DNA from: Paracyclopina nana
Lineage: Eukaryota; Arthropoda; Copepoda; Cyclopoida; Cyclopettidae
DNA: 64,000 nucleotides
Assembly (NCBI GenBank): GCA_019096065.1
Contig: JAGUCH010000002.1
Location: 12,350,501 to 12,414,500 of the forward strand
Reading direction: 5' to 3'
Shown: one piece after another, positions 19,021 to 59,492 of the stretch
Numbering within the stretch: the stretch's first letter is position 1
Layout of the letters: each line of letters starts with the position of its first letter
Made by a program: the position numbers and the translations under genes
Notes under the pieces: generated by a model
Database searches by the model: none
The model's input: only the letters and a program-made list of their open reading frames with translations
Told to the model about the DNA's origin: nothing

Positions 19021-22000
19021 CTAGTAAGCCAAGTTCACTGATAGCCACTCCTCAACTTCACTCACGTCAACTCCTTTCCTGTGAGCATAATCCTCCACCT
19101 AAGAAAAAATATGAAAAGACTTTTCTGGGCATCTTTTTAAAGCTAACTCACTTGATCTTTTTGAATTTTCCCAACTGAGAAGTAAGTGGACTTTGGATGA
19201 GCAAAGTACAGCCCTGAAACAGATGCAGCTGGGACCATGGCCAAGGATTCAGTAAGGGTGATTCCGGTTTTCTCAGCAATTTGTAAAAGCTTCCACATAG
19301 TCAACTTTTCAGTATGGTCAGGCTGAGTTGGATAGCCAGCTGCTGGCCTTATGCCATCATAGGCAACTTTGAGTAGATCTTGAGTGTTTAGGTCCTCATC
19401 TGGTGCATATCCCCAATAGGTCTTTCTTACATCTACATGCAGTTTTTCTGCTAGTGCCTCTGATAGCCTGTCAGCGAGAGCCTTCACCATGATAGAGCTG
19501 AAATCATCATGCTCCTTATCATACCTAAAGGAAGACTTGTAATAAATTGAAACTAAGCCAGGCTTTGAGCATGCTCACTTTTCACTTAGCTCATCACTTC
19601 CAAATCCTGCAGAAGTGGCAAAGATGCCGACATAGTCTCTTTTGCCTGAGCTTAGAGGGGCCACAAAATCAGAAATGCAATGACAGTGCTGATTTTCAAA
19701 TTGTTGCCTCAGCCCATAAAATGTAGCTATTGGCTCCATAGACTGCTCATTTGAATAGACTAAAATGTCATCACCTACAGAGTTGGCCGGATAGAATCCA
19801 ATGATGGCTCTAGCTTCAAGGAGCTTCTCTTTAATGATTGTTTGAAGCATGGCTTGAGCCTCATCAAATAACTTTTTTGCCTCTTTGCCTAAAGAAATGG
19901 TCATTTGGAAGTTGATAATTCATTCAACCTCAAATTAAATATTCTCAAGTATTACCAACTGTCTCATCATTGAAAATCTTTGGATATTTCCCATTGGGAT
20001 GCCTTCCTCTCAGCTGCCATACATCAAAAAAATACTTCCAATCTATCAGGGGCACCAGCTCCTCCAAGTCATAGTTTTGAAAAACTTTAGAGCCCAAAAA
20101 TGTGGGCCTAGTTGGCCTAAATGCACTCCAGTCAAGATGAAGAGCCTTAGCTCTTGCTTTCTCTAAAGTTAAATAAGTTTTGTCAACCAAGCTATCAAGG
20201 TAGTCCTCTCTCAAATCTTCATACAGATCCATGACATCATCCAAAAAATCATCTCTTCTGGTTTCATCAAGAAGATTAGAGCACTAAAAAAGCCCAATGA
20301 GTTTCAAATCAACCAACTTTTTTCATCTAATTACTACTTACCACAACAACACTCTTTGAAGCATCAAGAACATGAATAACAGGCTCAGAGTATCTAGGAT
20401 CAATTTTGACAGCTGTGTGTTGCCTTGAGGTAGTTGCTCCTCCAATTAAAAGAGGAATTTTCATGCCCAGTCTCTCCATTTCTTTGGCTACATGGACCAT
20501 TTCACCCAATGAAGGTGTTATAAGGCCAGAAAGTCCAAGGATGTCAGCACCTTGCTCTTGACAAGTTCTTAGAATGACATCACATTGAACCATGACCCCT
20601 AAATCAATGACTTTGTAATTATTGCATCCAAGCACAACTCCCACAATATTTTTGCCGATGTCATGGACATCTCCCTTGACAGTAGCCAGCACAACCTTTC
20701 CTGCATATTGGGGCTAAAGGAGAGGCATACATTTAAATCAAATGACTCAAAACAGTAGGTGCCATTTACCTCAGAGGTTGAGGTATCTCCATTTAAAGCC
20801 ATCTGTTCTTGCTTCTCTTGTTCCATGTATGGGATTAGGTGAGCCACTGCTTTCTTCATGACTCTTGCTGATTTGATAACTTGAGGCAAAAACATTTTAC
20901 CTGACCCAAAAAGGTCACCCACTACAGACATCCCATTCATTAAAGGACCTTCTATGACATGTAGAGGTCTTGGATATGCTGTTCTATTGCTTCTAGCCTC
21001 CTCAGTGTCTTCCACAATGTATTTGTCAATTCCCTTAACAAGTGAATGTTCAAGCCTTCTTTCAACACTCCAATGCCTCCATTCAGCATCCTTAGTATTA
21101 TTCAATGAGCTGGAAGTATTCTTGGACTGGCAATAGCTAAGCATTTTTTCAGTGCCATCTTGGGTCTTGTTCCACAAAATATCTTCACATAGTTGCAGAA
21201 GAGTTGGCTCAATGTCATCATAGACTGGCAAAGCTCCAGCATTGACAATCCCTGAAAAAGACACTGTTCAAGTCCTTAATTCCCTTTAAAAAAATATTGC
21301 TTACCCATGTCCATTCCAGCTCTAATTGCATGATACAAAAAGACACTATGCATTGCTTCTCTCACTTGCTCAAATCCTCTAAATGAGAAGGAAAAGTTAG
21401 ACACTCCACCACTTACTTTAGCTCCCGGGCAAAGTGCCTTGATTCTTGAAGTTGCTCTGAGGAACTCAACACCATAATTGTCATGCTCTGACATGCCAGT
21501 GGCCACTGTCAAAATGTTGGGGTCAAAAATGATGTCACTGGGCTGAAAGCCAACAACATTGACCAGAATGTTGTAGGATCTGGTACAGATTTCCACTTTT
21601 TTGTCTTCATCAGTGGCCTGACCTTCTTCATCAAAAGCCATGACTACCACAGCAGCTCCATATCTTTTGATAATTTTGGCCTTTTTCACAAAATCTTCAA
21701 CTCCTTCCTTCAATGAGATTGAGTTGACAATGCATTTGCCCTGAATGCACTTGAGACCAGCTTCAACCACTGCAAAGTCTGAAGAGTCTATGCACAATGG
21801 AACCTTGGCAATGTCTGGCTCCGAAGAGATCAAGTTGCAAAATTTGGTCATGGCAGATACTCCATCTAACATTCCTTCATCCATGTTAATATCCAAAACT
21901 TGGGCACCATTCTCGACTTGAGTCTTGGCAACAGCCAATGCATCCTGAAAAGCTACCTTTGATTTGGCTGGCTCTACCAATTTTAACAATTATACTCACA

Positions 22001-29430: not shown

Positions 29431-32186
29431 ATGCCCGGAAAACGAAGGAAACCTCGAAAGAGAAGTATGTACGAGGCTGTGGACAAGCGACGAACGAATA
29501 GGTTACTCCATCAGATCCAGAACAAACTCGAAACGGTGAAAAGTTCGATTGGCAATGAAGCGGCAAATATCAACAAGATTTTGCAAGGAAATGGCGATGA
29601 GTAAGTAAAGATTCATTATGGCCTTTAATCAAATCACGATTCAAATGTTGCAATCTTAGGTCAGGGATCAATTCCATGGCAAACTTACGGCTGCAAGAGG
29701 AGCAAATTGAACATGTTCAGGGTCAACTGAGCAAAGCAATGGAAGCCATCATGTTGACATCATCCACTGAAAGTGATGATGACTTGCCCCCTAAACGTCC
29801 AATGCCTATGTCGCCAATTGCGGTCATTTTGTTGTCAGACACGGATGACAAGGACGAGCACCCAATTCGACGTCGATTGAATGCCACACGTGTTCAAGCT
29901 CAGAAACTTCGTGATGGCAAATGCCAAACTTCACGTTTCGCTGAGTATCCGACAGCATCGACATCCAGAGCATCATGTTCTCTTCAGTTTTCGGCTACTA
30001 CAGTCCCGGACGGATACGAATCTTCAGTCAGTGTTGTTCCTGAAACGGAAGGATTTGTCATTGATGGCGAGCTTCTTGTTGATGCCAACCGGCCAACATT
30101 AAAGATAGCTGATGACAATGAGCTATCCTCTGGCGATCCTGAAGAGTACGACTACAACAAAGCATCTACCAGCTCGTCTTCTTCTGGCGAGGAGACACCA
30201 ATTGAGGAAGACTACGACAGTCAAGAGTTGAAGAAGCAAGGAAAGGTCAAACCAGACTCGTCCACAGATACTGCGGCTGACAGTGACGTCGTCCCTGATG
30301 ACCAAGCTGAAGTTGCTGGCTCGTTCTTACTGAACATCAAGTCATTTAGAGCTCATGCTCGAAAGGTCAGGAACTTGCCACTTTGTGATAAGAATCAAGC
30401 CTTTTATGATGTGTTCGACAATATCGCTATCAGAACCTGTGTTTCTGACGAGGCCACCAAGCTCTTCTACGACTTGTTCAGAGCTCAAACTGAGATGGCT
30501 GAACGAAAGCTTCCAAACATCATGACTTATAGGTTCAGAGCGGAGTCAGCGCAGCCAAAGATGACGATTGATTTCGAAATTTTGGATCTTGAAAGTAACG
30601 AGATCATTAAGATTGATGGTGCGATCAAGTACCCCCAAAAGCAGTATCCAAGGCACCGCTACTTGAAGGTTAGCGAGTATGGGCATGTCAAATTGTACGA
30701 CCTATGGCTGTATGCTCAGAAATGCCACTCTCATTGCCCAGGTTATCACCAGTCCAGGACAGTAATTCTGTTCATGGACGGATTGCCCCTCTCTCACTCT
30801 GGAAATGAGAAATTGAACATGGTCCAAATTGTAATCCCACCATGTCAGACAGTGTACACTTTGGGCATGCACATTTATAGGGCTCAAAGTCAGCTGGATT
30901 CGAACAAGATCATGGCAATGCTTATCAAAGAATTCCAAGAATGTGGCCTATTTATTGGCAGAGTTGTTGGCGATGCCCCTGTTCGCGCTGAATTGAGCGG
31001 GCTAAAGTTGCATAGTGGAACATTCTCTTGCATGTACTGCTTTGCTGAGGGCGAAAATTGCAATCACCGTCAGGTTTTCCACCCGGACTCGCGATTTGCT
31101 GAGGAGCGAACTGATCAGTGGTATAAGGAGATGGCTAGTCGACTTGACAGACTGGGAAAGCAGGCGTTCGAACGAAACGAGTTGGCAGGACTACAAGTTG
31201 CAACTCCGCTGGCACTCCTTGAAGGCTTCAAGTTACCACGAGATCTAGGGCTTGAACCGATGCACAATTTGTCAGGTTGCTGCAAGCAACTACTGAAGCT
31301 CATGCTCGGTTTCGCCGGCAAAAGCAAATCAAAGAAACTTACAGCTGTGCAGGAAGCCATCATCGGACGTTTTGACCACAGATGGCAGGATATGGCGATA
31401 CCTCGAGAATTCAACCGACGAACCAGAGGCATGAAGGACAACTATGCGCATTATAAATCTCAAGAGATCATGTCCATCACAGTGTGTGGCGTCCTCGCAT
31501 TCGGAGAAGCTTTTCATGGAGACTTCTACAAGGGATTCGTCGGTACGTGGTATACCTACGCATTCATTGTCCATGCATCTCTCTTTGATGATGAGATGTA
31601 TATGTACATCGATGGAAAGTGCAATATGCTTCAGATGGCTGGAATCTTCTATGAGATGTTCTACGAAAATTTCGGGCTAGTTAACTGCTCATGGAACATC
31701 CATACGTTCTACCATCTCTACAAAGCTCGCCAGAACTCAAGGCTTCCGCATCTCAGCTCACTCAAATTTGAAAGCGACCTCAGCACTGTCAAGAGGAACT
31801 TGAAGCCGGGGACAAGATCAGTCCCGAAACAGGTCATTCGAAAAATGTTTCGCCGCAACAACGCCGGCCACAATTGCGACAATCGAGTCTCATTTTCGGC
31901 TGTTGAGATCTCACGATACTGCGACGACATCATCTACACAAACGAACGAAAGTTTTACAAGATCGTCCGTATCTCAGGAGAGCACTACATTGCTCATGCC
32001 TACATGACCAAGCCATTCGAAACACCTGAAGCTCCGCACTGTAAGTGGTGGACAATCGGAGTCGTCGTGTGCATCAAGCTGGATACGAAAGAGGAGCATT
32101 GCATTGCCAAAAAGGATTGTATTGGGAAAGGCTGCATTGATGGAAAGTATCTCATCTCCATCCCATTCGATGCCTTTTTCACATGA
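29431..32186 (+). CDS. CMC (EnSpm-like) transposase, 898 aa
   Basis: Exons 29431-29600 and 29660-32186 (59-nt intron, GA|GTAAGT..CTTAG|G). The N-ter is basic (MPGKRRKPRKR) with coiled-coil and acidic Ser-rich stretches to about residue 250. The catalytic core follows the animal EnSpm/Transposase_21 pattern: LFMDGLPLSHS (first Asp about 430), then RVVGDAPVRAEL (second Asp about 495) and SGTFSCMYCFAEG, a Cys pair resembling the GYFGCEKC motif of relatives. Next come LEPMHNLSGCCKQLL and a C-terminal zinc/cysteine-rich segment. It should cut and paste the element through its TIRs in the nucleus. The reading frame is uninterrupted, so it may be active. A non-transposon origin is unlikely given the TIRs. 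Confidence 0.85.
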
Positions 32187-41229: not shown

Positions 41230-42339
41230 GACGAAAGACAAGACTACTCTCTATCTGATATAACACTCAAAATCTTCATTATGGTGATATTACTGAAAAT
41301 AAAGCATTTTTGAACATTCGGTTTTTTTTAAGTACACTTCACAAGGCTCGCCAGCGATAGAAAGACAAGCTATAATGCATCCCATTGCAGATAAGAAGCC
41401 CATTGTACTGAATCTCATCAAAAATTACATATAGGTGGATGAGTCATGCATTATAGTCGAAACAACTTGCTAGTCACCAAGCTTAAGGGTGAGAATCTTA
41501 CTAAATTGAAGAGTGAGTCTAGTGGCACCAAAAGCTTTCTGGAAATGTTATGGACCACTTGGAGGGTCTGCCCTTTCACTGTGCCAAAAAGTTTTGCCCT
41601 TGAACTCCTGGGAGTGGAGATATGGGCCCCCAAAGTTTTGCGGAATTCTTATGTAGTAAAACTTTGCACACACCCTCCTGTCCATATGAAACAACATTTA
41701 TGAAACAATTTTTTGACCATGTTAGACACCTTAAGTGCCTCTCTGGAAATGGCAGATAAGTTGTCATCATGAGTGCCCACTGTGGGGCAAAACATGATTT
41801 TTTGGGGGTAACTTTGGAGCAAAATTGAGGAACCTTCCCCCGGATGAATTTTTTTCATTTTTTGCACAGAGTCAGCCAAAGTAGTACTTTCAATAAAAAG
41901 AATAAAAAAAGACTGATTTTTGTTTGAAGCCAGATAAGCCAGGCTTAGTGGTTGGGTTGCCGATGCTCTACTAGACAAATAAGTAATTTACGTACATTAA
42001 AAAAATTAACCTAGTACTAGTGAGCATAAGTTTTCCCTTTCTCCTCGATTCGCCAGAGCGTTGGCTTGATTTGATACGTACAGAAATTCTTTGAAACTGA
42101 AATTGGACTATTTTCATTGGTTTTACTCGATTAAGTAAATATTATCTTTTCCAAGAACTCAAATTTCGTTGCACAAAAAAATATTACAAAAAATATTAAA
42201 TTTTCAGTGAGAGGTTGCGTTACGAGTTTTTAATTTGTTACGATGGAAACTTTATTTACGTAATCAAAATTTTGCGCGAAATGGGCTGATGCATAGAATT
42301 GTATCAACATAATATTTGATTTATTTCTTGACTAGAAGA
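41230..42339. other. Intergenic region
   Basis: The poly(A) signal of the preceding gene is at about 41300. A weak inverted pair TATAATGCAT / ATGCATTATA lies at 41370-41457. Short ORFs here have no support. Confidence 0.5.
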
Positions 42340-43970
42340 ATGGCTCCAAAACGAGGACGAAGTGAATCTGGACACGTCAAAGTTGATGAAGACATATCTG
42401 ACTATGAACTAGTGCGCCTGAAAAACATCCAACAACGGAATTCAAAGTTTGACGAGCTCAACATCATCACTCTGAAGACTGAAGTGTCCGCCACGAATAA
42501 GAGAATAGTTTCCAAAAGAGGCCTTTCAGCCCAAACTTCTGAAAACACCAGTCAAAGTCATGAGCCTGTTCGCAAATCATTGCGACTCCAAAAGATTGAT
42601 GCTGACACCGGCCTTAGTTTGCCAGAAAAAGAACCGACCAAGTATTTCACCGACGAGTTGGAAAATAGGGAAAGGCTACCCTTGACTGAGTTGGAGCTGC
42701 AAGATCTCTCTGACGATTTTGAAAGGATTGGAGCATACTTGGAGAAACTTAAGCCCGTCATCCGCAATTCGAAAGACAGCCATACAGGATCAAGAGACAC
42801 TTCAGTCCTCAAGAAGGCATTGAAATCTCTCAAAATTTCGGCAAGTTAACTAGGTACTTACATGGCAGAAAAACTAACGAGTTGATTTTAGCCTGAGCAA
42901 GTTGCAAAAGTTACTCCAGATCGGATATTTTCCTTGGCTATTCACCCCACTGAGGACAAGTTGCTGGTGGCTGCCGGTGGTAAATGGGGTACTATAGGAT
43001 TTTGGGATGTCCTTGATACAACCTCATCTATGCATGGAGTAGAAACATTTAAGGTACATCATTTGTAGGTCTTCCATTTCAGTTTACGACTAAAAGTTGC
43101 TTTACAGCACCACTCAAGGCCAGTGAATTGCCTTACGTTCGACAACTATGACTCAACTCGGCTCGTCTCTACTAGCTATGATGGTACAGTGCGTATCTTT
43201 GACATCAATGCTCAAAGATCCTCTGTGCTATTTGCTTTCCCAGAGGAGGACTCAAATGCCTACACTACTTATCACAGCCAAATTGACCAGCACAGTTTCT
43301 TGGTGACTATGGGTAGATCTGGAACTATTGGTCTGGTGGATACTCGGAAATCAAACCAGAAGCCATCAACCACTATTAAGGTTTTCGAGAAATGCTCCCC
43401 CAAAATGGTTCACATACATCCACTGAAAAAAGAAATGTTTGTAACTCCAAGTTCCAAAGGCGAGTGTGGAATTTTCGACATGCGAAATTCTGGTAAGAAA
43501 CCAGTCATGTGGCTTGAAGGCCATACTAAGGCCCTGAGCTCGGCCTTTTTCTCTCCTCTCACCGGAAATCAGGTCCTTACAGTGGCCTACGACAATAAAG
43601 TGAGGATATTTGACACTGAAAAAATGACCAAAAATTGCCGACCCCGATTGAGCATCAATCACAACAATCAAACTGGAAGGTGGCTGACGACCTTCAAAGT
43701 AAGCCAAAAAAAAGCACAGCATGAAAAAGCTCAATTCTAATATGTCTAAATTGATGATTACAGGCTGAATGGCACCCTAATAATGAGGAGCTTTTCTTTG
43801 TGGGATCAATGAGCAGTCCGAGACAAATCGATATGTATACTAACAGTGGGGAGCATATGTGCTTCAAAGGGGAAGATTTAGCCTCCATTTGCTCAATTGT
43901 GAAATGTCACCCATCTCTAAATGTGGTCGTTGGAGGAAACTCATCGGGTCGAGTTCACGTTTTCAAATAG
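42340..43970 (+). CDS. WDR76: WD repeat protein 76 (Cmr1-like), copy 1
   Basis: Four exons (42340-42840, 42892-43053, 43108-43698, 43764-43970) give 486 aa. The N-terminus has the family motif DISDYELVRLKNIQQRNSKF and KSLRLQKID. WD-repeat blades follow (SLAIHPTEDKLLVAAGGKWG, LVSTSYDGTVRIFD, MRNSGKKPVMWLEGH). The C-terminus has the typical AEWHPNNEELFFVGSM and VVVGGNSSGRVHVF. WDR76/Cmr1 is a nuclear chromatin-associated protein linked to DNA damage response and CUL4 or Ras turnover. The first intron must be GC-AG: TCG|GCAAGT..TTTTAG|CCT. The only nearby GT donor (one base-pair set later) leads straight to a stop. A paralogue lies 1.6 kb downstream. Confidence 0.92.
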
Positions 43971-45293: not shown

Positions 45294-45584
45294 AATAGAG
45301 AACTAGATTTTGCGGAGAGTATAATCTTGTTGAAAAGCTGCCAGACTTGAAACTCAGAAGCCATCTACTATTGTCAAGTTTAGTCAAAATAAGCCATTTA
45401 CAAACTTTATTACTCCTTAGCAATAACTCTTCACTTAATTTTTTTTGTAAATAAAGCTACTAAGCTAGTTTAGCTACCCACTACCTTGTACGGCTACGGC
45501 AGAAAAATTCCGTGAAATGAGTAGGGCATAAAAACCGTTTGAGATTGAAGAATATTCAATAAATTCACCGAATTGAAGTTAAAT

Positions 45585-47215
45585 ATGGCTTTTGACTTGA
45601 AGCTGCGTAATGGTGAGCGCGAAGATATTTCCGATTACGAGCGTATTCGCCTCTTTAACATCACAGAGCGGAAATCCAAGTACGTCGAACTTAATCTGGA
45701 TCAACTCAAGTCAGATCTCAAACGGAAGCAGAAGCAATCGAGCAAAGGGCCCAAAAAGGTTTACACGCCCCGCAAATCCTTGAGGCTCCAAATGAAGCCC
45801 CAGAAGCAATATGCTGAAAAAAAGAAGCCTCGCGACACTTCGAGGGCAATGAGCGATGACTCGGAGTCTGAGTCAGACTCCGATCAAAGCTATCCAACAT
45901 GGGAACTTGACAAGTATATCTCAACTGCTGACAACATGGAGAGACTTCCAATGGCACACCTTGACTTGCAATATATTTCTGAGGATTACGAGAGTCTGGG
46001 AAAGCTCTTTGAGACTGCAGGTTCTTATATCAGTAATATGGAACTTCCGCAAAAGAGGCAACTAAGAGATGGCGTGTCCATAGGAAAGTCCCTGGAAGCT
46101 CTCAAGAGAGACGTAGGTTTTTAAGATTTAAGATATACACCACCTAAACTCTCATTTCATAGGATGACTACGCCACCAAAATTATGTTCGATATCATGAC
46201 TTCCATGGCTATTCATCCCACTGAGGACGAACTTTTGGTGGCTGCTGGAAACAGATGTGGCTCCATTGGAATAAGAGCTATCAATGCTGAAACCGCCTTG
46301 CACAGAGTCGAAACATTTGAGGTGAGCCAGGAAGTAACATTAATCGCAGATTAGATGCTTAACACTGTTTACAGCATCACACAAAGAAAGTGAGCCACCT
46401 TTCTTTTGATGAGTACGATGCTGCCCGCCTTTTGTCAGTCAGTCATGATGGGACTATACGTGTATTTGACATCAATGCTCAAAAATCCTTGGATCTGTTT
46501 GCCTTCCACGAGGACGATGCTTCTGCCTACGCCAATGACATCGGCCAGATTGATCGGCACTGTTTTCTGATGACGATGGGCAAATCTGGAAAAATTGGAC
46601 TTGTGGATGCGAGAAAATCCAATGTGCAAGCAGTTGCCATTTTTAATTTGTTCACCAATGGGCCTCCTAGAACTGTTCATGTTCATCCCGTGAAAAAGTA
46701 CCGCTTTGTTGCTCCTGACCAAAAAGGGTCTTGTGGAATTTTCGACTTGCGGAGCTTGAGCAAAAAGCCAACCTTATGGCTACGCGGAAACAGCAGGGCT
46801 GTTCGTTCAGCTTCTTTTTCCCCTGGCAATGGATCAAAGGTTTTGGCTCAAAGTAATGACATCATTGCAGTATTCAACTTGAAAGAAGAAAGCAATGGCA
46901 TCGACAAGCAACCCAATTGCACAATTGAGTCCGGCGGTAGCAATGTCTTTAGGGTAAGTATTGTTTTTTTTCTATGAACTCGCAGCTTGATTATTGCTAT
47001 CGCTGTAGGCTGAATGGTACCCTAGGAATGATGACCTTTTTCTCGCGAGCTTGGTCGGCAACCCTCGGCAAATTGAACTAATCAATACCATCAATCTTGG
47101 CCGGCATACCCTTGATGACAGCACAACAAGTATCTGCTCTTTTATGAAATGCCACCCAACTTTGGATGTTGTGGTCCTTGGAACGGGATCTGGATATCTT
47201 AACGTCTTCAAATAG
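45585..47215 (+). CDS. WDR76: WD repeat protein 76 (Cmr1-like), copy 2
   Basis: Four exons (45585-46112, 46163-46321, 46375-46953, 47009-47215) give 490 aa. Intron positions and phases are the same as in copy 1, so the pair arose by tandem duplication. Shared landmarks: DISDYERIRLFNITERKSKY, RKSLRLQMKP, MAIHPTEDELLVAAG, LLSVSHDGTIRVFDINAQKS, MGKSGKIGLVDARKS and the final AEWYPRNDDLFL..FLNVFK-type end. The two proteins are clearly diverged (roughly half identical by eye). Here the terminal GGNSSGR motif has become GTGSGYLN, and a Ser/Asp-rich insert (SDDSESESDSDQ) precedes the blades. All introns are GT-AG. One copy may have a specialised role; that is inference. Confidence 0.92.
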
Positions 47216-47365
47216 CTTCTTTTCGTCGACTTTTCATTCAATTGGAATTATTATGTTAATCAACCAAATTCGAAGTGGAATTACAAAATGAACCATAAGC
47301 AGGGATAAATTTGGTGTATAATTTCCCTTTTTTCATAATGTAAAACTTTTAAAAGAAATCTTAAG

Positions 47366-50300
47366 CTAGTGATTGCTTCTTTTGGCAAGCTCAGGGAAAA
47401 GCTCTTCGAGGACGACATCTAATAAAATATAGGTGAGCTGTAAGAAAAAGTTAGGACTCAAAAGTTTGACAATTTATGATCTTTTATAGCTGACCTGTTT
47501 GCTAAGGATCGGGTCTTGAAGGCTGTCGAACACAAACTGTATGCCATCCTCGTACTGCGCTTGACCAGCCAAAGGCTGAACAAAAGGCCTGAGAAAATTG
47601 CGAAAGTTATCCAATGCTTGCTCCTTTTTGAGTCGTTTTTCTATGTCAGCCTGCTCCTCAGTGACATTTAGGCGGCTGCTATCAAAGAGTGAAGCCTCCA
47701 CAAGCTTCACCAAATAGGCAACCCTATTAGGGCATAGCACGGCAGCTAGTTTTGACCTTATGCCATAGTCAACCAGATGATCAAAGCTTTTTCTGACGAC
47801 GATTCCCACCCCATGCAGCAACTGCAGCAGGAACGGAGAGACTTTGAAAAGTGTGGCAGCCAAGTAGAAAATAACATTGAACACGCCAGTTTCTTGGCGA
47901 ATTTTGTGCGTTTCCACGCTTGCAAAAACTGGGCCTTGACGGGGATATTTGACAAGGTTGAAGATGTTGGCAAACACTTTATGTGGCTCTATCACTCTGG
48001 CAGAGTGGTCATCATGTTCATCGTAGCTTCCAATTACGCTATCGTACCTGCAAACAGCAATGATCCTCATGAAGACTGTAAAAGTCCTAAATTCAAATAT
48101 TACCTTGGCTTGGAGGGTGGGGACAAGGTTGAGGCCACAAAGTTGTCAATGAACAGCTGTAAGCTCTGGCCTCTCTCTTTGGAGGTCAATTTTATGGGGT
48201 TCACTTTATTGATGATCTTGCCAACGCCAAATGTTGTGGAGTTGGCAAGAGTGAATTCTTCCGAGGAAGTCAGAAAAGTGAACAAAATGTCCGATTCCTT
48301 TAAAAATGGCTTCCTTAGTAGCCCACCCAGGAACTCTTCAAAGGGTTTCATTTTTGATTGCAATACATCGAGGTCTTTGGTGACAAATAAGTTCACCTTG
48401 GGTGGCAAATGCAAATCCTCAAATTGGCCATGAAACTCTGTCAGCTTGGATTCCAGAGTGTAAAATTCAGAGTACTTGCGAAACACTGTCCACTGCAAGT
48501 CTTCTGCATTTTCCATAGTTGAGGTTATGTCAATTCTTTGCACCTAAAAACCACTCAATATGACGAGGGAAGTTAAATGAGACAAATCTGAAGGATCACC
48601 TCTACCACAAAAATGAAGAACTTCTTGCCATTTTCATCTTGCTTGGTAGCCACGCGAGGAATTTGGACTCTCCAGGCTGACAGGTCTTTGTATTCCAGAA
48701 TGCTGCCCAATCCAGGCTTGATGCTCGTTAGTGTTTCATCTCCTTCGTCACCATCCATGATGTCTTCAGTACACATGTCAGCAATGTCAAAGGCAGGATC
48801 AGTTGGAGCATCAATGATACCCTCCATGGATTTCCCCAAAACTCCTTGCTTCAACTTTGATAATCCTTTGCCAATCCCGGCTTTCACATTCATATCTTTG
48901 CTCCTGGAAAAGAATAAGATTTTCAAAATGGCATATCTTTGGCTCGCATAAAAATAAAGCAAGAGGAGGAAAAAGTGAAATAGCAGAAGCTAGACATTAT
49001 ATGTGCAATAGGACATTTTTTGTACAACAAGCCCAGTTTTATGTGCAGAGTGAACATGGAATTTCTTTAATAACCTTGAGAGCACACTAGAAACAGGGGA
49101 AACCCCACCCATAAATGAGGGCGTGGCGGTCATGAAAAGTTTCATGGGAGAAGACATTGTGTTATAGCCAGCTTTTTTCATCCTCCTCCCAAGGCTGGTT
49201 GTCGTTGAAGACTTTTTTAACACAGGCGGTCTCGATTTCGGAAATGTGTTGGATTTCTGGCTTGTTTCATCCATTGGCTCAATGGGAAATCCAAAGCTAT
49301 CAAGGATTGCAGTGGCTCCAGTTGATTTTGAGCTATCATCAAGTAAGCACGGTAGGGTCATTTTTGTGCCAACCAAAAAGTTATTTTTTAAACTGCTATG
49401 GTCCTACCGTGCATGCTTGAAAGTGTTGCCATCATCCTCTGAGCCTATGGACAAGCTTCTGGACTTCTTGCTCATCAAACTTGTCAAGGAGACAGACCTG
49501 TCTCCAATGGAAGCCAAAGCTGAAGATCTTACCAAGTCGATTTCTGAGGAGCTCTTGCTTGGATTCTCGTCCTCTTCGTCAGTATCATAAAATTTACTCA
49601 TGCTTTTGTGAGGGGAAGGAGTTTTCACAAAAGGCAGCTTTCTCACGTTAGAAAACCAGAATTTCCATAACATCCTCAATTAATGAAACAAAGGGTGAAA
49701 TAAAAACTAATAAGCTGATTAGAGCTAAACTAATAAAAAGTCGAGCTAGGTGTGCATGTTATAAAACATGTGAGCTTAATGGTTATGCTTACTTTGACGC
49801 ATTTTTGTCTGTTCCTTCGGATGCCCCCAAATCTCGCTTTCCAAGCAAGTACGTGAAATACTGCATGATTGATTGATTGAATTGGATAATTTTAAGATTT
49901 TAATGAACACAACTCACCTCCTCGCTTTTGAAGAAAGAAGGGCAGTACTTAGATTCGAGGCTGCTGTAGACTTCCTCATAAGCCTTGAACAAAGGAGGAG
50001 TAGACCTAAGCTGGACCACGTTGCTCATAGGACCACTCAAAACTGAAATTGAAACCAGACTGACATAGTCATGGTGAGCATTATAAAATGGGCATACTTA
50101 GATGAATTTCTGCCACCAAACTTGGGCTGACATTCACTTTATGCTCAGCATTGCTCTTGAAATGCAAGTTATAGAGGCTCATGGCATCATCGTGTAGGTT
50201 TTTCATGTCATCCTCACTGAGCTCTGGGCTCATAATTTTCTTATTGAATTCCTCTATCAAAACAATGAAAAAATAAAAATTGTTCGTTTCAGCTTCATAC

Positions 50301-52582
50301 AATCTTTGCAAGTGGAACTCACCAACTGCTAGGCAAAAATGCAACTGATCAATAGCTTGCTTTTCTTTCAGAAAGTTCATAAATGCAAAGAGAGACGTTT
50401 CATTTTTCAGGATGGTTGACATATCAATGCGTAGGGCCTGCAACCAAAAAAAGTAGTCAAAGTTAATAAAATACGGATTTGAAATAGAGAGCATGCAAAC
50501 GCACGGAGTTTTGCGAATTTCCATGCGTCTTCGCAAATTTGCCCAATAATTCCACTTTAGCTCCAGAGGCTGGAGGAAACTTTCGGCTTGGTCCGGGATG
50601 AAATGCTAAGGCTAAAATTGGATTGGCTGTCATGTCAGGATTCCCAACCAGGTCAAGAACAGGCTGCAAAACTGCTCCAAATAATAGATCTTTGATTAGA
50701 TCATTCATCGTCCTACGAATCATGAATGTTGATTGGATTTTTTGCAAACATGACATAAAGCGTGTAAATACTTGGAAGATCTGTATCTGGGAGGCAGCAA
50801 AAGAGGCACCAACGACGAGGAGATTTCATGGACATAATCAACCTCTTTGACGCGACTTAATGCAGCTGGATGGAGACGAGGCCCAACAAAGTCCATGTAA
50901 GCTTCTCGCAACTCCAGGTTGATTTCTCTCGTGTTGAGAGGGGATCTGACAAAATTATCCGCATGGATCAGAGCATCAATGTGGCTCAGCCCTATTGGAA
51001 TGACTCTTTTGACAATCAAATCAGTGAGGTCCACCTGAAATCGAAATGTATCACAGAGAAGACATTAACATATTTCGGGAGCTTTATTACCTTAAGAAGC
51101 CTTTTGGTCAAAATGGCCACAGAATGCCTGAGAACATATCGTATTTCTTGCATAAAGTCCTCATCGTAGGAGATTTCTCTGTACCAAAAATAGACATACT
51201 CTTCTAGAAGTCTCTCAAAGAACTCCCCTAAGGCAGAGTCCACCTCGACAGGAACAGATAAGTTAGAGTAAGGCTCAAAATCTAAATGAGCCAAGCAGTT
51301 TTGCTTTTTGCACTGGCCACACCTGAACCCATCATGGAGGCTTGGAGCTACCCAACTTGAAATGAAATTAGGTAATTGGTGGCCTTGGCTCAAGCTAAAA
51401 GGGACTTTGATCAGATAGGAGCTCATGCACTAGCATTTTTCTTACTCTAAAGCAATCGAGAGCAATGTGGCTCCGAAGCAAAAAGATGTGACCAATAAGA
51501 CCGCGGCAGAAACGCTGAAAAAAGAAGGAAATTTATTCAGTGATGTCTTTCTTAGACAAGCATTTTGCCTCGATTCGAGCAATCAACTTTCTGCCATAAA
51601 AATCCCTAAATTCTTCGGGCAAGTCATCTAATTGGTGCCAAACATTATCAAGCATTCGGAGGGCTTTAGCACCTGCAACAACATCCTTATTTCCATATGG
51701 ATCTTTCTTGTCATAAAAGTCATTCGGGAGGTTTTTCCAAAACACATTGACAGCTATGCCAGCCTCGATGGCTTTCATGTTGTGAAACCAAAGAGCAGGG
51801 ATGAAGAGGATGTCACCTGGCTCCAGATGAGCTCTGAAGCTGGCCGCATTTTTCAGCCTCGGAAACTGTGCGTCAAGATCTGGATCAGAAAAATCAATCA
51901 CCCTGGACTTGTCTCCATCCAAGTAGAGATTGAAAGCTTCATTGGGTGGCCATAAAATGGCTGTTTTCCTGCCAACGACTTGAACATAGACATTATCCAT
52001 GATGTCATAGTGAGTCCAAACCCTCACACCAGGCGATGAAAGCCTCAACACAGACGAGAAAAATCGATCAGGATCGAAGAAGTGTGAATTGTCAAACTTG
52101 AAGTCGGCTTGCAGACCGGGGAAATCAGCTCTGAAGTCAGCCTTGACTTGTCCTCGTGGATCATCTCCGAGTGATCGAAGGTAGTACTGCTCCTCTCCAG
52201 AATTGTCAATGAAAATCTTCTCGACCAACTGCTTCAAATTCATAGACATGTACTTGAAATTTTTCGCCAAAAAGTCCATTCGGTTCACTTCGGCTTTTGA
52301 CACTTGATGAACTTTGGCGTCTTTGTCTTCAATGTTGGCCATTAAATGGACCGGATCTGCCCACAGCTCCAGACACTGGCCAAGATCATAGCCCTTGAGG
52401 ATGGCCGGCAGACGGGTGTCGCCCAGGTGGTCCCGAAATTGGGACAAGCTCTCAAAAATCTTGACTGATTCAGTCGACATTTCTTACCTCACGGCGAGAG
52501 ACAGGGCAACAAAGGCCAATATAGTGACGACCAAAACGCGGTGGACGAAGACAACTTCAAGATGAACACCACCAACTCGCAT
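47366..52582 (-). CDS. SNX14: Sorting nexin 14 (PXA-RGS-PX-nexin_C)
   Basis: Fifteen exons join in frame to about 1098 aa: 52582-52488, 51514-51446, 51394-51091, 51034-50772, 50712-50505, 50437-50323, 50253-50098, 50042-49918, 49860-49793, 49674-49408, 49332-49075, 48903-48600, 48543-48104, 48047-47495 and 47437-47366. SNX14 is an ER-anchored lipid-transfer/lipid-droplet contact protein. Two N-terminal helices (VLVVTILAFVALSLAV and VSAAVLLVTSFCFG) are followed by RCGQCKKQNC and a PXA domain (YVYFWYREISYDEDF). Then come an RGS-like domain (LFAFMNFLKEKQAID), a PX domain (VFRKYSEFYTLESKLTEFHG) and nexin_C ending LTYILLDVVLEELFPELA. Exon 1 is assigned from phase, consensus AG|GTAAGA and hydrophobicity. 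Intron 1 (52487-51515) contains the entire TYW5 coding sequence. Confidence 0.9.
51533..52480 (-). CDS. TYW5: tRNA wybutosine hydroxylase TYW5 (JmjC)
   Basis: A single uninterrupted 315-aa frame from ATG 52480. TYW5 is the Fe(II)/2-oxoglutarate JmjC enzyme that hydroxylates wybutosine on tRNA-Phe. Seen: YYLRSLGDDPRGQVKADF, SPGVRVWTHYDIMDN (Fe ligands His157 and Asp159), LEPGDILFIPALWFHN (His233), then VFWKNLPNDFYDKKDPYGNK and the final LPEEFRDFYGRKL. It lacks introns and lies wholly inside intron 1 of SNX14 on the same strand. Its ATG is 7 nt from that intron's donor, and its stop is followed after 18 nt by the intron's acceptor. In an unspliced transcript the SNX14 frame stops at TAA three bases before this ATG. 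Confidence 0.95.
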   Translation of the reverse strand: MSTESVKIFESLSQFRDHLGDTRLPAILKGYDLGQCLELWADPVHLMANIEDKDAKVHQVSKAEVNRMDFLAKNFKYMSMNLKQLVEKIFIDNSGEEQYYLRSLGDDPRGQVKADFRADFPGLQADFKFDNSHFFDPDRFFSSVLRLSSPGVRVWTHYDIMDNVYVQVVGRKTAILWPPNEAFNLYLDGDKSRVIDFSDPDLDAQFPRLKNAASFRAHLEPGDILFIPALWFHNMKAIEAGIAVNVFWKNLPNDFYDKKDPYGNKDVVAGAKALRMLDNVWHQLDDLPEEFRDFYGRKLIARIEAKCLSKKDITE

Positions 52583-52924
52583 GATTGGGCTCTTAAATCG
52601 TCATTTTGAAGCTGGGCGTTGTTATTCTTGCTACTTCAGCGATTTGTTTACACATACGTTGACACAACAGCGTTTCCCGACAAAATTAAAAAGTAGACCG
52701 CTTGCTGTTAAGAAAATCGGGCCACAAATCAGTTGCTGCTCTACTTTGCCTTAACTGCTCGAATTGGCTTAACTGGTCTGGGCGGTCTGGGCTGATACTG
52801 ATTTGTGATTAAATATGAGTTCCCATGAAGCAAAGTGAGGCATTCAAAAGCACAAATGTCAAATTGTTGGTTAAATCAGGTTTATTATAGCTGACACAGG
52901 CTCCTTCTGGCATTTCTTTTTTAT
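52583..52924. promoter_or_regulatory. Upstream region of the SNX14/TYW5 locus
   Basis: 342 bp between the SNX14 start (-) and the stop of the Thr-rich protein gene (-). It must hold the SNX14 promoter (and perhaps that of TYW5) plus the 3' UTR of the Thr-rich gene; TTTATT near 52872 reads AATAAA on the minus strand. No TATA box is evident. Confidence 0.45.
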
Positions 52925-53405
52925 TCAACCCAATTGAATAGTTCCAAAAGTGGGGCTGTTAAAGTTCAGGGCATTTCCCAGTTGTCCCAGCACTGAAGAG
53001 AAGAATCCTGGCTGCTGTGTGGTTGTTGTTTCCTCAGTAGCTGTTGTTGTAGTGGTTGTGGTAGTTGCGGTAGTAGATGTGGTGGTTGTGGTTGTGGTTG
53101 TAGTAGTAGTTGTGGTTGATGTGGTGAATTCAATTTTCTGCAGGACTGGTAGGCTGTTGTCCACCTTCACAGGTGTCCCTTGAACAGCATTCACGAGCAG
53201 CTTGAGTTCATCTGACAATTGGGGCTCCTCTTTTGCAGAGATTGGAAGTGAGCTCACATCTTCACCTTTGACAGGCCTAAAATTTAAATGCCTTTGATTA
53301 GCTGAATTAAGTCTATGGGTATAGTTTTTCTATAATTTACTCTTGAGGCCTAGACGTTCCCCTATGCAAAATGAGGAGTAAAAGGAGGGTTTTGCACCAA
53401 ATCAT
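52925..53405 (-). CDS. Secreted Thr-rich (mucin-like) protein, 138 aa
   Basis: Exons 53405-53341 and 53276-52925 join in phase 2 (GA|GTAAAT..TTTAG|G). The signal peptide is MIWCKTLLLLLILHRG. The body is short and acidic (KEEPQLSDELKLLVNAV), then a run of about 45 residues that is almost all threonine (with a few Ser/Ala), then EETTTTQQPGFFSSVLGQL to the end. The poly-Thr segment is coded by mixed ACC/ACT/ACA codons, so it is not a pure microsatellite. Dense O-glycosylation is expected. No family is recognised; similar small mucin-like proteins occur in arthropod cuticle and gut lining. Confidence 0.7.
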
Positions 53406-53623
53406 GGTTAAAGTTACACTGAAGCACCTCGAGCTTATTCTGTGGCCAAAAACAGTTAGAAGAGAAACTCCAACTGGTATTACCAGTTTGCATCCAGGTT
53501 TTTTCTGATGGGCTATGTATGGCAACATGGGCAGGCTCCAGGGCATTTTTTGCTGCACTAGGTGCTGCTATGCAGTTTAAAGATATATCGCGAAGATTTA
53601 CCTTTTTGGCAAGGTTATGGCAA

Positions 53624-54280
53624 TTATCCAACTGGCCTCCTTAATTGACCCAAGGCATCATAGGCAGGCTCTAATGGGTCCCAAGCATTACTTGCATTGC
53701 TTGGAGGGCTGATTTGGATTGTGATTGAAGGAATTGCAGGAGTTACCTCCACTGCTAGTACAGGATTATTGCACTGGTATTTCTCTATCCTCTCTTGCTT
53801 TAGTCTGTTGAGGGCTTGGGCACAGGCCACCATAATCACTAGACCCTTGGCTACATGAAAGCTTAGACTGATGCCACCCACAGATAGGTATGGAGTCCTA
53901 TAATTAAATCCACCATTGACGCTGTCAACTTTTAGGGTACTTCATAGAAAAGCAAATCTGGGTGGGTACGTGAAAAAACTCATTGAAAGCGAAATTATTT
54001 TTTACCTATAGGTGTAAATGATCCATACAATGGAAATGGCCACCAAAGGCCCCAGCCTGAAAGCTGCTACAGCCAACAAGTGGCCAAACTTGCCCTTGCT
54101 TATAAAGATCATCTCCAGCAGAGACAGCAAAACGCTGCAGCTGGCTGAGGCTAAAACAAGGCTGTGAACCAGAGGATTTGGAAAAGGTACCAGATTCTCC
54201 ACCAGAAAAAGAATAAAAGACAACACCAGATCAAGCTGGCTTAGAGTTGTCAGCACTTTGATGCTTATGCAACCAGCCAT
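53624..54280 (-). CDS. Four-helix membrane protein, 182 aa
   Basis: Exons 54280-54006 and 53897-53624 join in phase 2 (AG|GTAAAA..ATTATAG|G). Four hydrophobic stretches are visible: LDLVLSFILFLVENLV, LVLASASCSVLLSLLEMIF, LLAVAAFRLGPLVAISIVW and ISLSFHVAKGLVIMVACAQ. A hydrophilic tail of about 75 residues follows, rich in Pro/Asn/Ala (IPSITIQISPPSNASNAWD). The layout resembles the small four-helix proteins common in arthropods (for example DUF4728), but no diagnostic motif is seen. It lies on the same strand as, and 218 bp upstream of, the Thr-rich gene. Function unknown. Confidence 0.65.
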
Positions 54281-54900
54281 TTTATGCTTACTGTCATTTA
54301 GAAAGCCCCTTGTGCTACTGAGGAAAGAAAGCCTTTAATTTTTGAGCAAGCTAGCAAGCAACAGCTGAACATTAACGCACCTCCTGGTTTTTCTACCGAA
54401 AATTTTCCACAAAGGGGCAAAACAAAACTTTTTAGCAATGCAGATCAAATAACGGAATTCAGGTTTAAAAATACGGTGGTATCTGATCCAGTCATGGTTG
54501 ACTAGAAACTAGTATAGCAAAAAAGGAGGCACTCTTATAAGTGACCTTGGTCTATCAAATAATCGATGATATAATGCATGTGGTCAAGTTTCGAGTTTGG
54601 GCCAGGATTAATTAAAACGAAAGCTAGTAAATGCCCTTGTGATAGAGAATCCGATCAAAGTGGAGTGTACTCTATAAAATGGTGAAATGGATACAACAGG
54701 ATGAGAGAGAGTCTATTTCGCATAAAAACTGCACTTGTGCTCTAAGCTGGAATAATAATTAAAAACAAAATTCATTTGGAGGGCGGGGGTAAAATGCTAC
54801 ATAAAAAATCGGATCCATCACCAATGTGTAGTAACAGTTGATCATTTCTTTTTACAATTGGACTTCGTCACAGCTCATTACACGAAAAACGCCAGTGTTT
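54281..54900. other. Intergenic region
   Basis: 620 bp between the 3' end of SURF4 (-) and the start of the four-helix protein gene (-). AT-rich; presumably the promoter of the latter. No further structure seen. Confidence 0.5.
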
Positions 54901-56405
<1,505 letters not shown>

Positions 56406-57692
56406 TGCCCTGATATGTCACTGAAATCTTCACAGAAACCGACCCCAACTCGAGTAGCAGTGAGCAGTTCCAAAATGGCTGCGGACAAGTTAATTTTCTT
56501 CCTCCGTCTGCTGAGTTGACCGCTGAGCTCGACCAAGAACAGCAACAGATTTCACTCAGTAAGATTTTCCAATTTACTCTGGGTCGGAAAAGACCCGAGC
56601 CTGTAAAAAGGACATGAACATGAACATTTCACATTTCAGTGTTTCACACTTTCTTGTTGTTCGACCAAAAATGTCTTGTAAAATGGTAATGTAAGGCCTT
56701 CAATTTTTGTTCGCGAGCTACCTTTAGGGTGACAGCAGGTGGAATTTGAATTATTTCATAGTTGCCAATTCGCGAGAAATTCATTAAGCTTATTGAAAAC
56801 TTAAAATAGATCCTGTACATTTAATTTTTGTTTACTATGTTAATGAATCAATAAATATGAGCAAATGTTATAAACTCAGCAACATTTTTTCCAGTCTCGT
56901 ATTAATTCACGTACAACAGCATCGATGCCTTAAAAGATATGATACAATATTTGTCGTTTTTGACAGCGTAGGTTGCGTCAGCGGAAAAAGCGACTACGTG
57001 AGTCAAAATAATGTAGCTTACAATGGCATTCTAGGATAAGCCCTGTGTAGGCTTCTTTTCAATTGTTTTAGCTTTCTTGTCTTGAAATCGTTAGAGAAAA
57101 ACTCACATTAATTGGATTTCTTATCAAATGATCTATCAATCAAAAATTGACCAACTTAAAAGTCTTAGTTCCATGAAAAATGTTCAGTGATTTTATTCAA
57201 TATAAAATATTAACACATATTACCTTATGATAATAAATTTACTTTTACGTATGTAACTATTATTTGTATGAGCATCAGGCAGCTAGGAATTTTAATGTTT
57301 ACACATTTCATTATAAAGCATCAATGTCAGCTGACGTGAATCCATATTTATTGTGCGAAAGTAACGAAACCCTCTACAATTGACTGTAATGCTTCAGATT
57401 ATTTTTCCGTCAAATCACAACATTGTTTTCTCCGGCATTCTTCTACCGATATTTAATCGTTGTGATTTTTTTGTTTTACAGAATTCCAAGGGCGGCTTTT
57501 GAGTGTTTCACCGGCGAATGGAGAGGTTAATCTTCTTAAGGTAGTGAACAAGACAGTTAAAAACATCAGCCTCAGGTAAATAATCTCGACCCTGGTGTAG
57601 CATAGATCTGTGGCAAGAAACTACTTTTCTAATAAAAAATCATTTGGGTGACTCGTGAATGGCAGCTATGATTAAACCGATCAATTTTCAGC
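56406..57692. other. Divergent intergenic region with PNISR 5' UTR intron
   Basis: 1.3 kb between the starts of SURF4 (-) and PNISR (+). A 5' UTR exon of PNISR likely ends CCTCAG at 57575 (donor GTAAAT), with the intron reaching the acceptor CAATTTTCAG at 57691, one base before the ATG. The middle is AT-rich with no supported gene. Confidence 0.55.
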
Positions 57693-59492
57693 ATGTGGAA
57701 CAATGGGAATCCGTATGCCGCCAATCCCATGATGGAAAGCCAGTGGTCAGCTTACTACCAGACGATGCCTACTAGCCAAGTTGACTGGGCTTCACTGGCT
57801 CAACAATGGATTGCCATGAAAAATACTGTTGCTCCACAACCACCTCTTCCGCCTCCAATGCATTTTCAGCCCACACCAATGCCTTCCCTGGTCACTTCTC
57901 AAGCTGCCTTGAGCAACGAGGGCGGTGTGGCAAACATGGATTTGGAAGAAGATGTGGAAGAAGCTACTACGCAGCCTTCGCTAGAATTGTCATCGTCGTC
58001 TACCGGATTTTCAGACGTGTATCACACTAGACCTCATAAAAGTTTTAAGCCAATTGCCGAGGGTCAGCATCCAAAAAGAATTCATCCTCCTCCTCGTAAT
58101 GACTTTGCTCCAATGCCTTCTCATCCTCATCCAATGGGATTTCCAATGGTCGATGATCCTGGTCTTGATGCTGCTGCTCGGAAAAAGCTGCCTGCTTGGA
58201 TCAGAGAGGGCCTGGAAAAGATGGAGAGAGAAAAGCTTAAAAAGGAAGAGTCGGAGTTGAAAGCAAAGCTGAGGGAAGAAAAATTGCGAAAACAACGAGA
58301 ACTAGAGATGAAATCTGAGACAAGTCCACAAAAATCCAAATTTGATGATATGAAGTCAGATGACGAGGAGAACGAGGGAGATGAAGATGAGGAAGTGCCC
58401 GAGGAGCAACCAAGACGAGCCTCTAGGTTTGACCTAGAGGGAGAAGAGGAAACGGCTGCGGAAACGGCTGAGGAAAAGGTTGATGTGGAAGTCACGAAAG
58501 AATGGACCAAAGAAGAGATCCTTGAAGAAATGACTCATGTTCTGCGCAGATGCATGACTGAAATTTTGCTTGAGGTAACCAATGAAGAAATCCATGCTGT
58601 TGCCTCTGATGTGCTCAATGCTGAAATCAACAAAAAGTCTAAGAAGAAGGCTGGACTTGTAATGAATGTTCTTGCTAACTATGGTAGCGATAGTGATTCA
58701 GACAATGAGCAGTCAAAAAAGAATGGTGGTGCATCACCATCATCTGACTCTGATTCTGACTTGGAGAGCAAGATCAAGAAAAAGAAAAGGCAATTCGAAA
58801 AGCTTGAAGTTAACATTTTGGCTGATTGTGAATCAATGGAGAAAAGCTACGAGGAACGCGAAAAGCGTTGGAAAGATGGAATCAGCAAAGATTCTCCTGT
58901 GTTGCCGAATGGAAACACCAATGAGGAGAACGCTGTTACAAACGATAGCAGCTCAAAACCAGAGCCTCCATCTTCATCCAGACGCGAATCTCGGTCAGAG
59001 GATTCAAAGAGGCGCTCAAGGTCCAAGGATCGATCAATTAAAAGAACCAAAAGGAGATCCAGATCTCGGAAGCGGTCGTCCTCAAGATCAAGGAAACGGA
59101 AAAGGTCTGCATCAAGATCCAGAAAAAGGTCTAGGTCTAGATCAAGGAAAAGGTCTAGGTCTAGATCAAGGAATAGGTCTGGCTCTAGATCTAGGAAAGG
59201 TTCTGGCTCCAGATCCAGGAAAAGGTCTAGATCAAGGCAAAGATCTAGGTCAAGAAGGAGGCGATCTGGATCGAGAAAACGCTCTAGGAAGCATTCTTCA
59301 AGGGAACGGAAGTATTCGACATCAACCAAAGAGCTGTCCAAGGATAAGCACGCATCCAGAAGTAGAAGATCCTCTCGATCGAGTGAGCGAAGGAATCGAT
59401 CCAAAGATAGAAAGAAAAAGCATCAAAAGAGAAGACATTCCTCGTCTAGCAGAAGAAGTAGTTCGTCCTCTTCTTCTTCATCTTCAGCTTGA
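57693..59492 (+). CDS. PNISR: Arg/Ser-rich splicing-associated protein PNISR
   Basis: A single coding exon of 599 aa with ATG at 57693, immediately after a 3' splice site. The N-terminus has the family pattern (MWNNGNPYAANP..QVDWASLAQQWIA; human MWDQGG..QIDWAALAQAWIA). The strongest match is KKLPAWIREGLEKMEREKLK (about 160-180). Then come SKFDDMKSDDEENE, EEMTHVLRRCMTEILLEVTN, YGSDSDSDNE and a long RS domain (RSRSRKRSRSRS-type, about 430-590). PNISR is a nuclear-speckle SR-like protein. It is shorter than the human protein (805 aa), mainly in the Pro/Gln-rich N-terminus and RS tail. AATAAA follows at 59494. A 279-codon ORF in another frame is a by-product of the RS repeats. Confidence 0.9.
   Translation: MWNNGNPYAANPMMESQWSAYYQTMPTSQVDWASLAQQWIAMKNTVAPQPPLPPPMHFQPTPMPSLVTSQAALSNEGGVANMDLEEDVEEATTQPSLELSSSSTGFSDVYHTRPHKSFKPIAEGQHPKRIHPPPRNDFAPMPSHPHPMGFPMVDDPGLDAAARKKLPAWIREGLEKMEREKLKKEESELKAKLREEKLRKQRELEMKSETSPQKSKFDDMKSDDEENEGDEDEEVPEEQPRRASRFDLEGEEETAAETAEEKVDVEVTKEWTKEEILEEMTHVLRRCMTEILLEVTNEEIHAVASDVLNAEINKKSKKKAGLVMNVLANYGSDSDSDNEQSKKNGGASPSSDSDSDLESKIKKKKRQFEKLEVNILADCESMEKSYEEREKRWKDGISKDSPVLPNGNTNEENAVTNDSSSKPEPPSSSRRESRSEDSKRRSRSKDRSIKRTKRRSRSRKRSSSRSRKRKRSASRSRKRSRSRSRKRSRSRSRNRSGSRSRKGSGSRSRKRSRSRQRSRSRRRRSGSRKRSRKHSSRERKYSTSTKELSKDKHASRSRRSSRSSERRNRSKDRKKKHQKRRHSSSSRRSSSSSSSSSSA

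What the first reader, a model, noticed from the sequence alone, without database searches (positions are those of the whole stretch)
51515..52582. TYW5 lies entirely within intron 1 of SNX14 on the same strand, with a stop-start junction at the splice donor
SNX14 exon 1 (52582-52488) ends AG|GTAAGA and TYW5's ATG is 52480. If intron 1 is retained, the SNX14 frame runs into TAA at the donor and the TYW5 ATG follows after three bases (TAA GAA ATG). If it is spliced (acceptor TTCCTTCTTTTTTCAG ending 51515, 18 nt past the TYW5 stop), SNX14 with two N-terminal helices results in phase. One promoter could therefore yield either a tRNA-modifying enzyme or an ER sorting nexin, chosen by splicing of one intron. 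I know of no described pairing of this kind.
Basis: partly seen in the sequence, partly recalled or inferred. Interest (0 to 1): 0.82.

Follow-up and report, generated by a model that had tools for sequence, protein, structure and literature searches.

The report
TYW5 gene inside SNX14's first intron
In a compact, probably copepod, genome the complete gene for a tRNA-modifying enzyme fills the first intron of an unrelated membrane-protein gene so tightly that one RNA molecule can make only one of the two proteins; this is a tight new variant of a known kind of gene nesting, and how the choice is made still needs RNA data.

Summary
The anatomy is confirmed. On the minus strand, SNX14 exon 1 (52582-52488) is followed by a 973-nt intron (52487-51515). 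It holds an intact 315-aa TYW5 ORF (52480-51533): 7 nt from donor to ATG, 18 nt from stop to exon 2. A 15-exon, 1,098-aa SNX14 model fits. A relative's SNX14 (P0001, 71% identical over residues 1-420, on a contig too short for the introns) joins exon 1 to exon 2 at the predicted place. The other two SNX14 relatives found lack exon 1. TYW5 occurs once in full and best matches C2orf60/TYW5.

Because the donor lies 7 nt before the TYW5 ATG, almost any TYW5 mRNA must carry that donor unused; a spliced RNA loses TYW5. One molecule therefore makes one protein. An AATAAA overlaps the TYW5 stop. No RNA was available, so start sites, retention and poly(A) use are untested. The 'stop at the donor' is mostly automatic (5 of 14 introns). 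The kind is known: Su(var)3-9/eIF2gamma and VAChT/ChAT. New variant of a known kind; moderate interest.

The parts
52488..52582 (-). SNX14 exon 1, coding part: start codon plus first hydrophobic stretch (31 aa and two bases)
   Evidence: same start and same junction in P0001, 19 of 31 residues identical
51515..52487 (-). SNX14 intron 1, 973 nt, GTAAGA...TTTTTTCAG; the other 13 introns are 51-171 nt
51533..52480 (-). TYW5 coding sequence, single exon, 315 aa, stop TAA
51532..51537 (-). AATAAA overlapping the TYW5 stop codon; candidate poly(A) signal, cleavage expected near or past the acceptor (use not tested)
   Evidence: function inferred
51446..51514 (-). SNX14 exon 2, second hydrophobic stretch
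   Evidence: 21 of 23 residues identical to P0001
47366..51394 (-). SNX14 exons 3-15 (PXA, RGS, PX, Nexin_C), with their introns
52593..52604 (-). Three-codon upstream ORF ATG ACG ATT TAA before the SNX14 start
   Evidence: matters only if transcription starts upstream of it
52583..52860 (-). Inferred promoter and 5' leader interval between the upstream gene's end and SNX14 exon 1
   Evidence: geometry; no TATAWA and no TCAKTY in 52925-52480, one TCAGT at 52801

Best explanation
Two unrelated genes share one 5' region in a nested, same-strand unit. Transcripts start upstream of 52582 and carry SNX14 exon 1. If intron 1 is spliced, SNX14 is made, with the two N-terminal hydrophobic stretches encoded by exons 1 and 2 (the junction is shown in a relative at protein level). 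If the donor is not used, TYW5 is made from the unspliced RNA, most likely ended at the AATAAA that overlaps its stop codon (inferred). In that RNA the SNX14 exon 1 frame is a 32-codon upstream ORF ending 3 nt before the TYW5 start, so TYW5 translation depends on leaky scanning, reinitiation or start sites inside exon 1 (inferred). Per molecule the products exclude each other (follows from the geometry).
For: Complete 15-exon SNX14 model with GT-AG introns. P0001 joins exon 1 to exon 2 as predicted, on a 3,156-nt contig that can hold neither the introns nor TYW5. No SNX14 Met between residues 1 and 136. Exon 1 and leader DNA gave one match in the genome, TYW5 one full-length match, the SNX14 C-terminal exon one. 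The donor is 7 nt before the TYW5 ATG, which leaves no room for an acceptor. AATAAA overlaps the TYW5 stop. Fe-ligand positions are intact (H157, D159, H233 invariant in 18 of 18 aligned sequences; ligand roles recalled), and TYW1 and TYW3 domains are present (the other wybutosine enzymes were not searched), so TYW5 is probably functional.
Against: No transcript of this species was seen. Intron 1 has the strongest donor of the 14 and a strong acceptor, so it should splice well. In Drosophila, splicing usually beats intronic poly(A) signals (PMC3890989). An AATAAA after a GAA-TAA end needs only one following A, so it may be chance. Two upstream ATGs precede TYW5 if transcription starts above 52604 and three if above 52655. 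P0001 does not show that TYW5 lies in the relative's intron 1, and only 1 of 3 SNX14 relatives covers exon 1. RNA folding at the donor and acceptor is unremarkable (z -0.92 and -1.58). No clear core promoter was seen.
Confidence: 0.52

Rival explanations
1. Choice at the start site: TYW5 has its own start site(s) within exon 1 close to the donor, so the donor is too near the cap to be used and the AATAAA behaves as an ordinary exonic signal. The genes overlap but do not share a pre-mRNA.
For: PMC3890989 (abstract, passages and Discussion): in the Drosophila pairs tested the host ignores the intronic poly(A) signal and the nested gene uses it, and deleting the donor restores the signal. Such starts would also remove the upstream ORF.
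Against: The donor is only 7 nt before the ATG, so such leaders would be extremely short; starts further up in exon 1 still carry the donor. No TCAKTY initiator or TATAWA box in 52925-52480, and the one TCAGT (52801) lies far upstream; copepod promoter motifs are not established here.
Confidence: 0.27
2. Full-length bicistronic RNA: only intron 1 is kept, and TYW5 is translated from a long RNA that also carries the rest of SNX14.
For: Same strand, and the frame continues into stop-GAA-start.
Against: The TYW5 stop would be followed by about 3 kb and 13 further junctions, a classic decay substrate (recalled); a nearer AATAAA exists.
Confidence: 0.1
3. Spliced-leader trans-splicing supplies the TYW5 5' end, for example at the AG that ends exon 1.
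For: SL trans-splicing is reported in calanoid copepods (PMC4664967, abstract, passages and Table 1). Acceptor-like AGs further up, at 52758 and 52705, score 3.2 and 3.1 bits; a leader joined there would not remove the SNX14 ATG.
Against: The CopepodSL core gives 1 hit with 3 mismatches against 1 in the reversed control; the siphonostomatoid SL-like1a core gives 0. The paper's passages report none in cyclopoid and harpacticoid datasets. The AG at 52488 scores 0.82 bits, matched or beaten by 17% of AGs on the window's minus strand.
Confidence: 0.05
4. Misassembly or a wrong gene model: the two genes are not really interleaved.
For: Only genomic sequence of this species was available.
Against: Strong splice sites exactly flanking TYW5; conserved exon 1 peptide and junction in P0001; each piece found once.
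Confidence: 0.03

Closest known systems
Su(var)3-9 / eIF2gamma fusion of insects (PMC1435931; abstract and passages seen)
   Same: A single-exon gene lies in an intron of an unrelated gene, with a common promoter, shared 5' coding sequence and one product per mRNA.
   Different: There alternative splicing joins the shared exons to the nested exon, giving a common N-terminus of about 80 aa. Here no acceptor precedes TYW5: the shared exon ends in a stop and TYW5 has its own ATG.
Cholinergic gene locus, VAChT in intron 1 of ChAT (PMC3053374; passages seen)
   Same: A whole ORF in one exon inside the first intron of another gene; multiple promoters and alternative splicing.
   Different: As I recall, the shared 5' exon there is non-coding, and VAChT and ChAT share one pathway. 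Here the shared exon encodes SNX14's start, and no functional link is known to me.
Same-strand nested genes of Drosophila (PMC3890989; abstract, passages, Discussion seen)
   Same: Same-direction nesting is common: 727 of 1,651 nested genes.
   Different: Those counts require the whole nested gene inside the intron. Here there is hardly any intronic room for TYW5's own promoter or leader.
H13/Mcts2 (PMC13309782; abstract and outline seen)
   Same: A nested gene is linked to intronic polyadenylation of its host.
   Different: Mcts2 has its own intragenic promoter, controlled by DNA methylation at an imprinted locus.

Membership tests
TYW5 (JmjC tRNA hydroxylase) | Full-length similarity to C2orf60/TYW5 above other JmjC proteins | tested here: met
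   3al5 E 4e-85 over residues 11-311; next family FIH E 9.3e-17
TYW5 (JmjC tRNA hydroxylase) | HxD...H iron ligands | tested here: met
   H157, D159, H233 invariant in 18 of 18 aligned sequences; residue roles recalled
TYW5 (JmjC tRNA hydroxylase) | Hydroxylates the wybutosine precursor on tRNA-Phe | not testable with these tools
   TYW1 and TYW3 domains are present in the genome
SNX14 (SNX-RGS sorting nexin) | PXA-RGS-PX-Nexin_C architecture | tested here: met
   (PXA 23.8 bits on one exon, below its cut-off of 27); all four domains precomputed for P0001; P0001's PX best hit is sorting nexin-14
SNX14 (SNX-RGS sorting nexin) | N-terminal hydrophobic hairpin | tested here: inconclusive
   Kyte-Doolittle 19-residue means of about 1.9 to 2.8 for stretches starting at residues 10-37 in window and P0001: a long hydrophobic region, but two helices and their topology were not tested
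Nested genes with shared 5' exon (Su(var)3-9/eIF2gamma type) | Unrelated single-exon ORF inside a host intron, same strand | tested here: met
Nested genes with shared 5' exon (Su(var)3-9/eIF2gamma type) | Both mRNAs carry the same 5' exon from one promoter | not testable with these tools
   No RNA of this species; geometry favours it because the donor is 7 nt from the ATG
Nested genes with shared 5' exon (Su(var)3-9/eIF2gamma type) | Alternative splicing producing a common N-terminus | tested here: not met
   No room for an acceptor between the donor and TYW5's ATG; stop in frame at the donor
Spliced-leader operon | Known copepod SL gene and a good acceptor just before the TYW5 ORF | tested here: not met
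   (two published SL types only)

The most novel reading that the evidence does not exclude
A splice-gated two-protein gene in which the whole nested gene is the intron: donor, branch site, poly(A) signal and acceptor are packed into and around the TYW5 ORF, so the cell sets the ratio of a tRNA-Phe modifying enzyme to an ER sorting nexin by use of a single donor, with the host's first coding exon as the upstream ORF of the nested message, kept by selection across related crustaceans.
Probability: 0.25. Interest if true: 0.62.

Novelty: new variant of a known kind. Interest (0 to 1): 0.45.

Why it matters
If RNA data confirm it, this is an extreme, experimentally simple case of mutually exclusive expression of two unrelated proteins from one 5' exon: one donor, one intron, no internal acceptor. 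It would test how splicing, intronic polyadenylation and short upstream ORFs compete in a compact arthropod genome, and how nested genes survive with no private promoter or untranslated regions.

Tried and rejected
Spliced-leader reading: cores of two published copepod leader types were searched in the whole genome, without support, and the AG next to the TYW5 ATG is a weak acceptor; better-scoring AGs at 52758 and 52705 lie above the SNX14 ATG. Retrocopy with a surviving parent: no second TYW5, only 3 weaker JmjC-like hits, best E 5e-12 at 37% identity. Relatives with DNA: the TYW5 alignment found nothing in viral contigs (294 pattern matches, none confirmed) or genome contigs (22 pattern matches, none confirmed). 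So I could not ask whether TYW5 sits in intron 1 elsewhere. Regulatory RNA: no Rfam family at gathering score in 46000-56500, no exceptional fold. Promoter motifs: inconclusive. NCBIfam, a prokaryote library, gave no hits.

Literature: 0 papers with TYW5 and SNX14; 0 with three of dicistronic / shared first exon / nested gene / intron retention; nested gene / same strand / first intron / cholinergic gene locus gave 192 papers with two terms, 12 listed, of which I opened one; dicistronic / alternative splicing / unrelated proteins / common first exon gave 1, opened; nested gene / intronic polyadenylation / Drosophila / intron retention gave 50, 8 listed, two opened; TYW5 with intron gave 33, 12 listed, judged from the listing only; SNX14 with bicistronic gave 4, judged from the listing only as unrelated; spliced leader in copepods gave 32, 10 listed, two opened; a search meant to identify the organism returned nothing useful.

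'Probably copepod' rests on Tigriopus californicus being the best-scoring hit that bears an organism name in the listed 120 of 419 TYW5 relatives (54% identity) and on recalled small copepod genomes.

Full report
What is there. The minus strand at 52582-47366 carries a complete SNX14 gene. I fitted 15 exons with GT-AG introns, giving 1,098 codons with no internal stop. Exon 1 (52582-52488) supplies the start codon and the first hydrophobic stretch, exon 2 (51514-51446) the second. Between them lies a 973-nt intron, while the other 13 introns are 51-171 nt. Inside this intron is an uninterrupted 315-codon ORF, 52480-51533. It matches TYW5 (C2orf60, 3al5) over nearly its whole length at E 4e-85; FIH, the next family, is at 9.3e-17. 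In an alignment of 18 TYW5 sequences (the window and 17 of the 120 listed relatives) the three iron-ligand positions are invariant (ligand roles recalled). The genome also has TYW1 and TYW3 domains (the remaining enzymes were not searched), so an enzyme of the wybutosine pathway makes sense. TYW5 gave one full-length match in the genome, the SNX14 C-terminal exon one, and the exon 1 and leader DNA one.

Is exon 1 real? The best evidence comes from a relative. Of 7,995 scored candidates, two proteins matched residues 1-420. P0001 is 71% identical over that stretch and covers all of it; its first 31 residues match exon 1 at 19 of 31 positions and run into exon 2 (21 of 23 identical) with no gap. 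Its contig is 3,156 nt for a 920-codon protein. That leaves about 390 nt, too little for the introns and far too little for TYW5, so it is read as a spliced transcript (inference). It also lacks the residues of exons 10-11, as an exon-skipped isoform would. The other two relatives, P0002 and P0123, begin downstream of exon 1 and say nothing about it. Thus 1 of 3 relatives shows the junction and none contradicts it. P0001 does not show what lies in that species' intron 1.

Is it more than chance? The TYW5 match is not chance. The 'stop at the donor' is largely automatic: with intron phase 2, a donor starting GTAA or GTAG gives an in-frame stop, and 5 of this gene's 14 introns do so. What is unusual is the fit: 7 nt from donor to ATG and 18 nt from stop to exon 2, so without the ORF only 25 nt of intron would remain. 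A branch site should lie in the last codons of TYW5 or just after them; CACTGA around 51537 is a candidate by eye. AATAAA overlaps the TYW5 stop, though after a GAA-TAA end this needs only one following A.

What follows from geometry alone. An RNA spliced at intron 1 has lost TYW5. An RNA that keeps TYW5 has a stop at the donor and cannot yield SNX14 from exon 1; the next Met of the model is residue 136, probably inside the PXA region. So one molecule makes one of the two proteins. Because the donor is 7 nt from the TYW5 ATG, virtually any TYW5 mRNA, whatever its promoter, carries this donor and must escape its use, unless it starts in the last few bases before the ATG or receives a foreign leader.

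How it probably works. The simplest reading is one 5' region with two fates: splicing gives SNX14; non-use of the donor with cleavage at the AATAAA gives TYW5. The second half is inferred. Against it, intron 1 has the best donor score of the 14 and the 4th best acceptor, and in Drosophila poly(A) signals inside introns are generally ignored while a donor lies upstream, with rare and probably inducible exceptions (PMC3890989, abstract, passages and Discussion). That favours a low or regulated output of TYW5, or start sites so close to the donor that it cannot be used. In the shared-exon reading TYW5 is preceded by the 32-codon SNX14 exon 1 frame ending 3 nt before its ATG, and, if transcription starts higher, by a 3-codon ORF at 52604 and a 20-codon ORF at 52655 that ends at the same stop. 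The sequence around the junctions shows no exceptional fold. The leader shows no TATAWA and no TCAKTY, and one TCAGT at 52801.

Trans-splicing. Calanoid copepods use a spliced leader (PMC4664967, abstract, passages and Table 1). A core of that leader gave one 3-mismatch hit, against one in the reversed control, and a siphonostomatoid leader core none. The AG at the end of exon 1 is a poor acceptor, matched or beaten by 17% of AGs on the window's minus strand; two AGs above the SNX14 ATG (52758, 52705) score somewhat better. I find no support for it; an unknown leader is not excluded. [quoted passage not shown]

Comparison. The kind is known. In 20 of 22 insect species examined, a Su(var)3-9 exon lies in an intron of eIF2gamma and both proteins share an N-terminus of about 80 residues (PMC1435931, abstract and passages). 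VAChT lies in the first intron of ChAT (PMC3053374, passages). In Drosophila 727 of 1,651 nested genes run in the host's direction (PMC3890989). This case differs in having no internal acceptor, a host coding exon that becomes an upstream ORF, and almost no intronic sequence outside the nested ORF. The pair TYW5-SNX14 was found in no paper of the library searched. I therefore class it as a new variant of a known kind.

Limits. The arrangement's age, conservation and regulation are open.

Noticed in passing
52925-53329 (-): Upstream neighbour is a Thr-rich mucin-like ORF (weak Pfam Mucin match below cut-off); its stop codon is also overlapped or abutted by an AATAAA (52925), and a second AATAAA lies at 52886. 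It bounds the promoter interval of SNX14/TYW5.
   Followed up: partly
42313-43740 and 45549-46977 (+): Two neighbouring WD40 genes with similar-looking open frames, probably a tandem duplication.
   Followed up: no
5749-13728 (-): A single open frame of 2,659 aa, rich in Pro/Tyr repeats, with no Pfam match at E 1e-4.
   Followed up: no
29601-32186 (+): An 861-aa open frame with no Pfam match at E 1e-4; possibly from a mobile element (guess).
   Followed up: no
P0001 compared with 49674-49075 (-): In the alignment the relative's SNX14 lacks the residues of exons 10-11, as if both exons were skipped; flanking phases allow it.
   Followed up: partly
57672-59492 (+), 55327-56106 (-), 20599-21989 (-): Ordinary conserved genes: PNISR, SURF4 and parts of a probable methionine synthase (Pterin_bind, B12-binding).
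   Followed up: no
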